Positions 38,971-42,944 of a DNA stretch of 64,000 nt are shown here, piece after piece. A program made the translations under genes and the position numbers. This stretch comes from Petrosia ficiformis (taxonomy: Eukaryota; Porifera; Demospongiae; Haplosclerida; Petrosiidae). Under the pieces are notes generated by a model that made no database searches, had not been told where the DNA came from, and saw only the letters and a list, made by a program, of their open reading frames with translations. The DNA lies in assembly GCA_947044365.1 (NCBI GenBank), contig OX345636.1, forward strand, positions 29,926,466 to 29,990,465, read 5' to 3'. How positions within the stretch are numbered: position 1 is the first letter of the stretch; each line of letters starts with the position of its first letter.

Positions 38971-39130
38971 CACACAAAAAAAATATGTGCTATTTCAGCA
39001 CACAAATATGTGTCAAACTATTGTCCCAGATTTCAACACATAACACATGTGTTACATGAAAGGAGTGAGCTAAATCTGCACACGTGTATAATTATAGTTT
39101 TTCTAATGTGCTAAATTTACACAGGTTATT
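38971..39130. repeat. Left terminus and subterminal palindromes of the cassette
   Basis: TGTGCTATTTCAGCACA at 38986-39002 and TGTGCTAAATTTACACA near 39109-39125, with further ATGTGT/ACACAT words between them. They would be candidate protein-binding sites. Confidence 0.7.
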
Positions 39131-39291
39131 TCTTAAAAATTATAATTCTGAATAAAAACAGAAAGACATCTAATAATTTTATAATAATAATCAGTTAAAA
39201 CATAAATTTACAATAAAACTGCATGTGTGATTAAAAAATAATACTACATGTTTACAATAAGGAACAGAAACAAATTATATAACAGTTATAT

Positions 39292-41635
39292 CTATAGTTT
39301 TTTCATAATGGAGTTAATGTATGCAGAGTACCTAGCGGGTTTTTTTATGGAACAGTCTGGAGACTCTAATAAGTATTCTTGAAAGAATAGAAGTGTGCAA
39401 AGTGCTGGAATGGATTTTGGGTAGCTCACGAAAAATACGTAGTAACTTGCAATTATAGAAGAAATTGCTTGACTGATGTTGACATCTGTAACTTCAAACA
39501 AGATCGTTTTTTCAGCAACAACAAAAGCTTGTGATATACCATCTCCACTCTCGTTTTCAAAGAGCACAAGTCTGGGCTCTGAAAACACATTTCTTTTGAT
39601 AATCTCATCAATGGAAGTGACAGACTGTAGATAAAGAAAGGAATTTTTTTTAAATGCTTATCCCATTGGCCATGCATGACAATAGAGCATGCATTCAGAT
39701 TAAAATTTAAGCAATAATTCCAGAAACAAACCTCATAGATATTGAAAGCTGCTGGGGCCTTAACTGATGGCCCACACCTAAATGACTTGTCCAAATACCG
39801 AAGTGCTGTAATGTGGTCCTGATGTGTCTGGGGATCAGAACACAAATCCTTCTTTTCGGCCATAATAACAGGAACATATTTGAGCCAATTATCTGTAACT
39901 TTTTTGACAATATCTGCACCCATCATTAGCTCAAATTCAGCATAAATCTTATAGACATATTTTCAAGTAATATTAGCACATATATCAATTTATGTACCTA
40001 CCCATATCTTGTTATTGAAAAATGAATATTCATCTAAGAGCTTTGTAACATGTGACAGACTATCACATATGTTTTCTCTTCTTCGAGGATGTGTTAACTT
40101 AAGTAGTTGGCGAATAACATTGTGATTCATATTCTTTTTCGTACACTCTATTTTCAAGGCTGCACAATTGCGCTCATAAGATGTGACATCATCTTCTGAG
40201 TTTGTCTAGAAATAATGTATCATACATAAGTATAATGCACATATACATGTACATTTATGCAAATGGTTGCTGTGTCTGTACCTTCAATGTTGCTTTTGTA
40301 TTGTGAACAATAGCAGCTGTCACAACTTTTGTCTTTACATTCAGTGGTTCACTTCCTCTTCGAAGGTTTCTGAATCTTTGACTGAGGTATTCTTTCACAG
40401 AAATCTGTGTAACAATTATAATTTATATGTATATAATTATATGAGGCTAAAATTCAATTGATGTATTTATCTATCATTTACTCACCCAGTATTCACCATT
40501 TTTTGGGTTGATGTCTTGCAGCTGGGGATATTTATCACAAAGGGCTTTTGCCATTTCTACATACTCTACTGAAGTAGGGTTAGGACAATGGCCATACATA
40601 AACATTGAACACTCCCGTAGCATTCGTAGCTTGATGTTTCCGGTTATGTCTTGATTCGTTATACCTGACTGAACAATTGCTGAAAATGCAGATGGCATAG
40701 GACATGGCTTTGGAAGCCTCAGAGCCTGTGGTGATTGTTTGAGTCGTTTCCTCCATAGAGGAGTTTGATCACACTGCAAAGGGTGTTTACGAACCTTTGG
40801 TGGACTATTACAGGTTTCATATACATTACCTAAGACAGATAGTTAGACATTAATTATGTAACTCCAACTTATACATGTGTAGGTTACCTTGTAATTGAGA
40901 ACTGTGCTCTGCAATGGGTTCATGGTTTTCTTGGTCTTGTAACTCCTCCAAGTCAACACTGTTGATAAGTGCCATACTCGTGGAAATCAAAGAATCACTT
41001 TGAACATCTGCAGTTATAGCATTTGAATGCTTTTAGGAAAAAAAAAACAAGTAGTGACATAGTTATGTGACCTACCATAATTAATAATAACTAGAAGTCC
41101 ATGGCCATTATTAGTTAACTAAAGTCACAATACCTTACTAAATGGGGTTTTAGTTATATATATATATATATAGCTAAATAAAACAACACTAATATATACT
41201 TACTGTCTTTTGTGAAAAATCAGAATTAACAAGCTTCTTGAGTTTCATTCTAAAGGCACTTTGTGGTACAAGGACTTGAAATTCTTCAAAATCATCAATA
41301 AGATCAATTAAAGAGTTACCATCAATAAAATTATCTATAACAATTCAGTATAATTATTATTATATATATATATATATATATATATATATATATATATATA
41401 TATATATATATAATTATATATATATATATATATATATATATATATATATATATATATATATATATATATATAGAGCATAATATATATTTACCGGTATAAG
41501 TATTTAAATGATAAATTATAATTATGTTATAAACATACCAGAAAGCCGTTTCACCATTTCATAAGGAAAACCCGTTCCTAATAAATGGTCACTGAGTTCT
41601 TCAACTGTAAGGTCCACGTCCAATCCGTCGTCCAT
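39292..41635 (-). CDS. SAMD3-like SAM-domain gene, copy B (intact)
   Basis: Eight exons on the minus strand: 41635-41539, 41334-41204, 41029-40888, 40829-40486, 40404-40282, 40205-40002, 39947-39732 and 39624-39292. All junctions have GT/AG sites and matching phases; total 1,590 nt, 529 codons plus stop. Exons 1-2 encode a SAM domain (VEELSDHLLGTGFPYEMVKR, then NFIDGNSLIDLIDDFEEF). Later blocks are REC.MFMYGHCPNPTS, EYLSQRFRNLRRG, HPRRRENICDSL, EFELMMGADIVKKVTDNW and FEVTDVNISQAISSIIASYY, as in SAMD3-like proteins. I see no catalytic motif; the role is unknown. An upstream in-frame ATG at 41722 would add 29 residues starting with Met-Arg repeats; I prefer 41635. It faces the C2H2 gene at 41755. 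Confidence 0.85.
41362..41472. repeat. TA microsatellite in intron 1 of copy B
   Basis: More than 100 bp of almost pure TA repeat between exons 1 and 2 of the SAMD3-like gene. It may vary in length and be prone to assembly error. Confidence 0.95.
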
Positions 41636-41754
41636 GGCCTTTCTTCTTCGAGAGGCGACGAGAGCAGCTGGTAAAAATGCCGCGTTGTTAGACAACTTGC
41701 GCATGCGCATGCGCATACGCACATATTTATTATATATTCTAAGACCAATCTACA
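41636..41754. promoter_or_regulatory. Bidirectional promoter region with GCGCATGCGC palindromes
   Basis: The 119 bp between the two divergent start codons contains GCGCATGCGCATGCGC at 41699-41714, two overlapping matches to the NRF1-type site (GCGCATGCGC). CpG density is well above the surroundings. Shared control of both genes is an inference. Confidence 0.5.
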
Positions 41755-42643
41755 ATGTACTACTGTTCCTTCTGTGATTTTCAGTGTTTTACTAACAAAC
41801 TATTGATGAAACACATTAGAAGTTGCCATGAAAATGATGCCAACTTCAGAGTCTATTGTATGTTCTGTGGGATGGCTTTTAAAAGATGGGAAAGTTTCAG
41901 GAAACATTATGGCAGGTTCCATAGTGGTAAGTGGGGAGAAGGAGGATTACTATACTCAGTTACTAGATTACAATATATGTACATAAATAATGATGTATAA
42001 TATATTATTGTATATTTTATTGTATATAGATGAAATGAATGTTCTGGAGCAGCAGGATGTATCTTTGTATCCGGAACAGATTACCGATGACCTGAATCTC
42101 TCTGAAAATCATTCTAATATGCTTCAAAATTCTCATGAATGGGATCTGGAGTGGGATTGTACTATGTTTTTAATGAGAATTACAAATGAGCTATCTTTGA
42201 CTCATAGTGGTATTGACAAAATGTGTACTGCCACTCAATCATTCATTGATTTGATATTCAATAAAACATTTCACAGAGTTCAGAGTTGCCTTCAGTCACA
42301 AATTACACTTACTACTGAACTATCTAATGATATACGAACAGTCTGTAACCTCGGTGATGTGTTTAACCAATTAAGCTCCCGCTACTACAGAGAAAGTTAT
42401 TACTGTGAACACTTTAATTACGTAGTAAGTAACATAATAGTTGTAGGTATGTTAACAAAATCACTCCAATTAGAAGGATATGATGGAAAACTTTGTGCCT
42501 TTCATGTGTCAGCAACTGATATAGAAAAAGTTGTACTGTTTAAAGATTTTTACTGCCATGGTATCCTACATTTAAAGAATAAATCCGGAAAACTCTACAT
42601 TGTAGAAAAAGATAATCGATACAGAAGTATATGGTGCTTGTAG
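41755..42643 (+). CDS. Two-finger C2H2 protein of the cassette (intact)
   Basis: Exon 1 is 41755-41926, exon 2 is 42030-42643; GT/AG sites and phase fit, giving 261 codons plus stop. Residues 1-55 hold two fingers of the form C-x2-C-x12-H-x4-H (CSFCDFQCF...HIRSCH and CMFCGMAFK...HYGRFH). The rest (DEMNVLEQQDVSLYPEQI, then FLMRITNELSLTHSGIDKM and ILHLKNKSGKLYIVEKDNRY) has no domain I know. It probably binds DNA in the nucleus, and the cassette ends are candidate targets. The start is chosen because it gives the first finger and lies beside the shared promoter. Confidence 0.8.
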
Positions 42644-42944
42644 ATTGACATTACCATGTGTTTTTCGCATTTTGTTCATCATAAATAATTGTTATACATT
42701 GCATCATGTATTTTACCAAATGTTTGTGTAGTTATTTATTGCAGAGATCACTCAATATGCAACATTAAGTTTTATTAATAATACATTTTAATATTAATGT
42801 GCTATAGTTCAGTGTGCTATTTTTATCATCACAATAAGTATGTGCTATTTTAGCACACATAGGTGTCATTTAGACAATTCAACACATGCTTTCCTGAAAT
42901 GACACACACAAGTGTGTAAAAATTGCACACCTTTTTTTTCTGTG
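42644..42944. repeat. Right subterminal region of the cassette
   Basis: AT-rich sequence with TGTGCTATTTTAGCACA at 42841-42857 and TGTGTAAAAATTGCACA near 42912-42928, matching the palindrome type at the left end, and the inverted terminus at 42912-42944. No ORF. Confidence 0.7.

What the first reader, a model, noticed from the sequence alone, without database searches (positions are those of the whole stretch)
38971..42944. A two-gene SAMD3-like/C2H2 cassette that looks like an intact mobile element without a known transposase
Seen: 33 bp inverted ends starting CACA (26/33 matched), TA on both sides, subterminal palindromes, only two genes inside, both with intact spliced reading frames, in a divergent arrangement. 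It sits cleanly in a Tc1-like element. Known: CAC ends with short target duplications occur in CACTA elements, and SAMD3-like genes are multicopy in many animals. Inferred: this is a mobile unit, either moved in trans by a CACTA enzyme or using one of its own proteins in an unrecognised way.
Basis: partly seen in the sequence, partly recalled or inferred. Interest (0 to 1): 0.92.

Follow-up and report, generated by a model that had tools for sequence, protein, structure and literature searches.

The report
Crippled jumping gene with helper protein
The two-gene cassette is a shortened copy of a recently spread sponge transposon: longer sister copies carry the transposase that this copy has lost, an enzyme related to the plant CACTA transposases and, by predicted fold of a relative, to the antibody-gene recombinase RAG1, together with an unusual companion protein.

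Summary
In detail: window 38971-42944 is a discrete mobile unit. Exact 33-bp ends occur 16 (left) and 17 (right) times in the genome, 0 in reversed controls, giving 15 two-ended copies. It interrupts a repeat; a paralogous empty site has one TA where this copy has TA on both sides.

The element has a recognisable transposase; this copy lost it. Longer sisters carry 2175 bp missing between window 42454 and 42455. The intact gene, read in sister L014, encodes 817 aa: two C2H2 fingers plus a DDE transposase related to CACTA TNP2/Plavaka enzymes. The window's "C2H2 gene" is its two ends fused in frame, without the three catalytic residues.

The "SAMD3-like" gene is intact and inherited with the element: a diverged family in the genome (L031) has the same divergent gene pair, CACACAAAAAA ends and flanking TA. 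SAM similarity is weak; kinship to SAMD3 was not tested.

Best mechanism: cut-and-paste in trans, companion as accessory protein (inferred). New variant of a known kind; interest 0.6.

The parts
38971..42944 (+). Non-autonomous copy (3974 bp) of the transposon family
   Evidence: 15 two-ended copies with exact ends
38969..38970 (.). Left target-site duplication TA
   Evidence: single TA in the paralogous empty site L032
42945..42946 (.). Right target-site duplication TA
38971..39003 (+). Left terminal inverted repeat, CACACAAAAAAAA...
   Evidence: 26 of 33 match to the right end; 16 exact occurrences in the genome
42912..42944 (-). Right terminal inverted repeat, CACAGAAAAAAAA... on the minus strand
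   Evidence: 17 exact occurrences in the genome
39292..41635 (-). Companion gene, intact, 8 exons, 529 aa: 41635-41539, 41334-41204, 41029-40888, 40829-40486, 40404-40282, 40205-40002, 39947-39732, 39624-39292
   Evidence: hand-made gene model, spliced frame open with GT..AG introns; dN/dS 0.28-0.42 against three older relatives
41755..41926 (+). Transposase exon 1: two C2H2 zinc fingers
42030..42424 (+). Transposase exon 2 (to residue 189)
42454..42455 (+). Internal deletion junction: 2175 bp present in L009 (L009:4768-6942) are missing here, and with them all three catalytic residues
42455..42643 (+). Remnant of the last transposase exon (exon 11), in frame with the upstream part; 261-aa fused frame from 41755
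38858..44534 (.). Host repeat (inverted arms 38858-38923 and 44469-44534; Tc1-like by eye) interrupted by the insertion

Best explanation
This is an internally deleted, non-autonomous copy of a very young cut-and-paste DNA transposon family in a genome that I take to be the sponge Petrosia ficiformis. Shown: the longest sister without foreign DNA is 6146 bp (L009), with two divergently transcribed genes, a companion protein (529 aa, weakly SAM-like N-terminus) and a transposase (817 aa as read in L014) with two N-terminal C2H2 fingers and a DDE core related to CACTA TNP2/Plavaka enzymes; 15 two-ended copies share exact ends, 10 of them have matching 2-bp target duplications (TA, TG or CA), and the copies carry different internal deletions. 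Inferred: the transposase cuts at the CACA ends, the fingers and the companion help to recognise the TGTGCTA-rich subterminal DNA, and the window copy moved (and may still move) with transposase supplied in trans; internal deletions arise by abortive gap repair. In this assembly the intact transposase (L014) and the complete companion genes (window, L009-L012) sit in different copies, so the two proteins would have to complement each other in trans. The transposase core is expected to work like RAG1/Transib: RNase H fold, a helical insertion between the second D and the E, and a CxxC...HxxxH site.
Against: The own transposase does not itself match Transposase_21. Ends are CACAC/CACAG, not CACTA. 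Five of 15 copies lack a matching 2-bp duplication (L009, L014, L016, L020, L023; L014/L016 can be explained by an inversion between them). No copy with both genes complete was found among the 18 loci compared, so autonomy is not shown. No expression, protein or excision data. The structure was predicted for a homologue about 30% identical (P0003), not for the sponge protein itself. A sequence profile of the transposases does not find RAG1 in the PDB. Two related transposase loci outside this genome have no detectable companion.
Confidence: 0.93

Rival explanations
1. The window copy is itself a complete two-gene element that moves by an unrecognised mechanism using the companion or the C2H2 protein.
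For: Intact ends and two open frames in this copy.
Against: Its deletion is private among the loci compared; longer sisters contain a recognisable DDE transposase in the missing stretch. The 261-aa frame runs through part of intron 2 and lacks D280, D374 and E631.
Confidence: 0.02
2. The window copy is a regulatory derivative: its fused 261-aa zinc-finger protein competes for the ends and represses transposition, while its intact companion gene acts in trans (like repressor-type deleted P elements, recalled).
For: Fingers and an open frame are kept and the companion gene is intact.
Against: An open frame across the join has about a one-in-three chance; this deletion is not seen in the other loci compared, so there is no sign of selection for it; no expression data.
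Confidence: 0.15
3. The companion gene is not part of the transposition machinery but a captured host SAM-domain gene (a passenger).
For: Companion-like loci L029, L030, L036 and L037 have no transposase detected in the 7-8 kb fetched, and L030 has no recognisable end; transposases in L038 and L039 have no detectable companion.
Against: Three sets of copies in the genome (window family, L029/L037, L031/L036) place it at the same end in the same direction, and L031 also keeps the divergent transposase; it looks constrained (dN/dS 0.28-0.42 on few changes); a sea-cucumber protein joins a related transposase to a segment collinear with it (pairwise P 4e-4, probability 35).
Confidence: 0.2
4. Not a transposon but a segmental duplication of a host gene pair.
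For: None beyond the multicopy state.
Against: Exact ends with unrelated flanks in 15 copies on seven contigs, target duplications, empty site.
Confidence: 0.01

Closest known systems
CACTA (En/Spm) superfamily, TNP2/TNPD-type transposases, with fungal Plavaka
   Same: Transposase family: relatives match Pfam Transposase_21, DUF4218 and Plavaka; ends begin CAC; two element-encoded proteins; repeated subterminal motifs; internally deleted copies (En/Spm proteins: passages of PMC1636069; defective Spm recalled).
   Different: Ends CACAC/CACAG instead of CACTA; 2-bp rather than 3-bp duplication (3 bp in plants recalled); the second protein comes from a separate divergent gene, whereas tnpA and tnpD are splice products of one unit (PMC1636069, passages). 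Similarity of the companion to TNPA was not tested.
Animal TRC elements (SmTRC1 and relatives; Spongebob of Hydra)
   Same: CACTA-superfamily elements in animals with 2-bp target duplication (PMC1636069 and PMC4298943, passages seen); in SmTRC1 7 of 14 copies showed it.
   Different: Those ends start CCC; here CACA. The passages read mention no SAM-like companion.
RAG1, RAG1-like (lancelet BbRAGL/ProtoRAG) and Transib
   Same: Best fold match of the modelled homologue over 470 residues; ends starting CAC (for RAG and Transib recalled); D-D-E with CxxC after the second D and HxxxH 20 residues before the E (RAG1 zinc residues recalled); ProtoRAG also pairs its transposase with a second protein (recalled).
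SAMD3 / SAM-domain proteins
   Same: Weak SAM-like N-terminus: Pfam SAM_1 E 0.03 in the L031 companion, below the cut-off; profile best PDB match 2dkz_A E 0.0031 (listed as hypothetical protein LOC64762; that it is a SAM domain is recalled), SAMD1/Atherin E 0.3.
   Different: The whole protein has no Pfam match; the window's own N-terminus does not hit SAM_1; kinship to SAMD3 rests on recall and was not tested.

Membership tests
CACTA/EnSpm superfamily (by transposase) | Transposase homologous to TNP2 (Pfam Transposase_21) | tested here: inconclusive
   Own protein does not hit PF02992 itself; DUF4218 and Plavaka at 8.8e-4, below cut-offs. Its homologues do: 9 of 33 aligned members match Transposase_21. 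Together this supports the affiliation.
CACTA/EnSpm superfamily (by transposase) | DDE triad with conserved D, D, E | tested here: met
   D280 33/33, D374 33/33, E631 31/32 in alignment A1; strand/helix order of the homologue's model fits an RNase H core
Plant-type CACTA | Terminal repeats starting CACTA | tested here: not met
   CACACAAAA and CACAGAAAA in all 15 two-ended copies
Plant-type CACTA | 3-bp target duplication (recalled) | tested here: not met
   2 bp: TA, TG or CA in 10 of 15 copies; single TA in empty site L032
Animal TRC group of CACTA | 2-bp target duplication | tested here: met
Animal TRC group of CACTA | Terminal repeats starting CCC | tested here: not met
   CACA ends
RAG1/Transib | Core fold with helical insertion | tested here: met
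   on the model of homologue P0003, not on the sponge protein
RAG1/Transib | CxxC and histidine zinc site at RAG1's positions | tested here: inconclusive
   CxxC and HxxxH columns conserved; their match to RAG1's zinc residues is from recall, residue pairs were not printed by the structure search
RAG1/Transib | Detectable sequence homology | tested here: not met
   profile A2 against PDB sequences finds no RAG1 or Transib up to E 10
RAG1/Transib | 5-bp target duplication (recalled) | tested here: not met
   2 bp
SAMD3-like proteins | SAM domain | tested here: inconclusive
   weak signals only
SAMD3-like proteins | Similarity to SAMD3 outside the SAM domain | not tested
   no SAMD3 sequence was compared; the search of the protein set gave no hit to the companion

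The most novel reading that the evidence does not exclude
Animal CACTA-like elements of this lineage are two-protein, RAG-like machines: a transposase with a RAG1-type core and C2H2 DNA-binding fingers, plus a dedicated SAM-like partner that is inherited with it, as RAG2-like proteins are with RAG1-like ones. Multicopy SAM-domain genes in sponges and other animals would then be remnants or domesticated copies of the partner.
Probability: 0.3. Interest if true: 0.85.

Novelty: new variant of a known kind. Interest (0 to 1): 0.6.

Why it matters
It explains a puzzling 'cassette without a transposase' as a broken sister of a young transposon, and shows how easily such derivatives are misread as new mechanisms. 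It gives a defined candidate for a recently active DNA transposon in a sponge, with matched ends, a candidate transposase and a companion. It links TNP2/CACTA-type enzymes by predicted fold to RAG1 and Transib, which bears on how the antigen-receptor recombinase arose. It also suggests where some multicopy SAM-like animal genes might come from.

Tried and rejected
Searching the sponge genome with the transposase protein did not complete, so the number of other transposase families in the genome is unknown. The companion protein found no relative in the large protein set; residues 520-876 of the sea-cucumber protein P0053 found only P0053 itself (only the 7999 candidates sharing most words were scored). 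No relative of the transposase in the viral-contig collection: 48 stretches matched a pattern, none confirmed. In the prokaryote genome collection 2 of 31 pattern matches were confirmed; both contigs (L038, L039, probably eukaryotic contamination) carry the transposase but no detectable companion, which counts against universal pairing. L029, L030, L036, L037 have companion-like genes without a transposase detected in the 7-8 kb fetched; second ends were not found for L029, L036, L037. The transposase shows no clear constraint in the same dN/dS comparison: 0.80 (L017), 0.36 (L024), 0.77 (L026, 21 codons only), one stop in each. In one search two of the four empty-site copies (L033, L034) were entered in the wrong orientation and say nothing; L032 is clean, L035 has 11 extra bases near the junction. 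A first version of the target-duplication count gave 9 of 15 (p 0.059); L012 has a separate 290-bp left-end fragment outside its true left end, and using the true end gives 10 of 15 (p 0.011). One search's tblastn ran on a faulty file and returned nothing; one search showed the error, one search repeated it correctly. Paper searches: SAMD3 + transposon 6 papers, none relevant by title; CACTA + sterile alpha motif + transposase 0; SAMD3/multicopy/transposable 952 with two terms, 20 listed, none with SAMD3; CACTA + 2-bp + target site duplication + animal + EnSpm 0; EnSpm + SAM domain 2, not relevant by title; SAMD3-like 1, not read; nothing relevant listed. PMC12062965 was checked by term search for SAM and CACTA only. 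A reference on transposase catalytic domains was not held. 'Not in print' is therefore claimed only for these searches; Repbase/Dfam could not be searched.

Considered and rejected: capture of a host gene pair by a CACTA element (the right gene is the transposase itself); Helitron-type mobility (inverted ends and target duplication argue against).
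Full report
WHAT IS THERE. The stretch 38971-42944 has 33-bp inverted ends with 26 matches, more than any of 20,000 shuffles gave, and TA on both sides. A genome search with the whole stretch gave 91 matching pieces, with 40 of 561 candidates scored. Searching with each 33-bp end, up to 3 mismatches allowed, gave 16 left and 17 right ends, all exact, and none for the reversed controls. They pair into 15 two-ended copies of 2519 to 6216 bp on seven contigs; two further right ends (L024, L025) have no exact left end, and one further left end is a 290-bp fragment next to L012. 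Diverged relatives exist too (L017, L024, L026, L027).

AGE. Between the 15 copies, the last 490 bp differ at 0.8 positions on average (maximum 4; 105 pairs) and the first 860 bp at 1.4 (maximum 4; 91 pairs, L014 left out because it is deleted there). The family spread very recently (inference).

TARGET SITE. Ten of 15 copies have matching dinucleotides on both sides: TA six times, TG three times, CA once (permutation p 0.011). The other five are L009, L014, L016, L020, L023. L014 and L016 lie head to head, share a spacer of about 25 bp, and their unmatched dinucleotides fit if the spacer was inverted between them (inference). The window copy interrupts a repeat with 66-nt inverted arms, Tc1-like by eye. 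The joined flanks gave 40 matches, two of them the window's own flanks, 32 across the junction, and L032 has the empty site with a single TA.

THE MISSING TRANSPOSASE. Against the 6146-bp copy L009, the window copy lacks 2175 bp, with the join between window 42454 and 42455. The right gene in L014 splices, by my gene model, into 11 exons and 817 aa without a stop. Residues 1-57 hold two C2H2 fingers. A search of 5.8 billion proteins gave 57 relatives among 4228 candidates, best 1.5e-111, including named proteins from the tunicate Styela, the cichlid Archocentrus, Daphnia, the sea cucumber Holothuria and the protist Lithocolla. Of 33 aligned members, 9 match Transposase_21, 5 DUF4218 and 3 Plavaka; the sponge protein itself reaches 8.8e-4 for DUF4218 and Plavaka, below Pfam's cut-offs, and does not hit Transposase_21. 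Three acidic residues are conserved (D280 33/33, D374 33/33, E631 31/32), as are C395, C398, H607 and H611, at nearly constant spacing: 30 of the 32 rows that could be measured have the same four distances. Exons 3 to 10 and half of exon 11, with the whole triad, are gone from the window copy.

THE COMPANION. The minus-strand gene is intact (8 exons, 529 aa). Pfam finds nothing in the whole protein, and none of 4490 candidates in the protein set scored E <= 0.001. Weak signals point to a SAM domain at the N-terminus: SAM_1 E 0.03 in the L031 relative, though not in the window protein; two-sequence profile match to 2dkz_A E 0.0031 and to SAMD1/Atherin E 0.3. Against diverged relatives dN/dS is 0.31 (L017), 0.28 (L024) and 0.42 (L026) on few changes; for the transposase it is 0.80, 0.36 and 0.77 (21 codons), so only the companion shows consistent constraint. 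The gene is tied to the element: L031 holds a two-ended element of 4406 bp with CACACAAAAAA ends (20 of 26 matched), TA on both sides, a companion 33-45% identical and a transposase on the opposite strand. In a search with that element, seven other matches begin at its first or second base and seven end at its last or last but one. L029, L036 and L037 have companions next to a TACACA[C/G]AAAA end, but no transposase was detected in the 7-8 kb fetched. L030 has a companion-like gene without ends. Outside sponges, one of the 33 aligned members matches SAM_1 (E 0.0014), presumably the sea-cucumber protein P0053, which UniRef names SAM domain-containing; its tail is collinear with the companion (hhalign pairwise P 4e-4, probability 35): suggestive, not firm. 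Transposases in L038 and L039 have no detectable companion.

WHO SUPPLIES WHAT. Over 18 loci of the window family, judged by ungapped exon coverage, the companion is complete in 5 (window, L009, L010, L011, L012) and the transposase in 1 (L014, where the companion is truncated); none has both. L009 has all transposase exons but a 26-bp gap in exon 8. Either the two proteins complement each other in trans, or a complete copy is absent from this assembly. The deletions differ from copy to copy, with 0-10 bp of overlap or up to 7 added bases at the joins (read), as expected of interrupted gap repair (inference).

SPECIES.

PLACEMENT. By transposase the element belongs with the CACTA superfamily in the broad sense. 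It fails the strict marks of plant CACTA (CACTA ends, 3-bp duplication) and one mark of animal TRC elements (CCC ends), while sharing their 2-bp duplication (PMC1636069 and PMC4298943, passages). I therefore call it a new variant: a CACA-ended, TNP2-related element with a separate, divergently transcribed companion. By predicted fold it should work like RAG1/Transib but is not filed as a member of that family.

VERDICT. The interest lies in the family: its companion gene and its RAG1-like core.

Noticed in passing
window 17274-20384, minus strand: Frames matching aspartic protease, reverse transcriptase, RNase H and integrase, as in Ty3/gypsy-like LTR retrotransposons (the class name is recalled). 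Described only.
   Followed up: no
window 4854-5771, minus strand: Frame with reverse transcriptase and GIY-YIG matches, both below Pfam's cut-offs, as in Penelope-like elements (the Penelope comparison is recalled).
   Followed up: no
window 55513-56418, plus strand: Open 302-aa Tc1/mariner-type transposase frame (DDE_3 E 2.1e-28, HTH matches).
   Followed up: no
L014 and L016 (G000 C10:3858100-3873000): Two copies of the window family lie head to head with a spacer of about 25 bp read in both flanks, and swapped flanking dinucleotides, as if the spacer had been inverted between them.
   Followed up: partly
L030:1569-5000: Companion-like gene without element ends or transposase detected, with an upstream frame that resembles a Ulp1-type protease by eye (DCGIYL motif, recalled): possible host-retained copy.
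   Followed up: no
L020:2094-4351: A window-family copy holds about 2.2 kb that does not match the element, with element bases 5329-5336 on both sides, as an 8-bp target duplication would give: another insertion inside it.
   Followed up: no
L039 (contig of a Cycloclasticus MAG from a poecilosclerid sponge): Contig in a bacterial assembly carries a transposase of this family: probably host sponge contamination.
   Followed up: partly
L038 (contig of an Aquifex MAG, 3729 bp): Transposase of this family matched over residues 4-798 of 817 in one stretch of 2427 bases, so apparently with few or no introns, in a bacterial assembly: probably from an unknown eukaryote.
   Followed up: no
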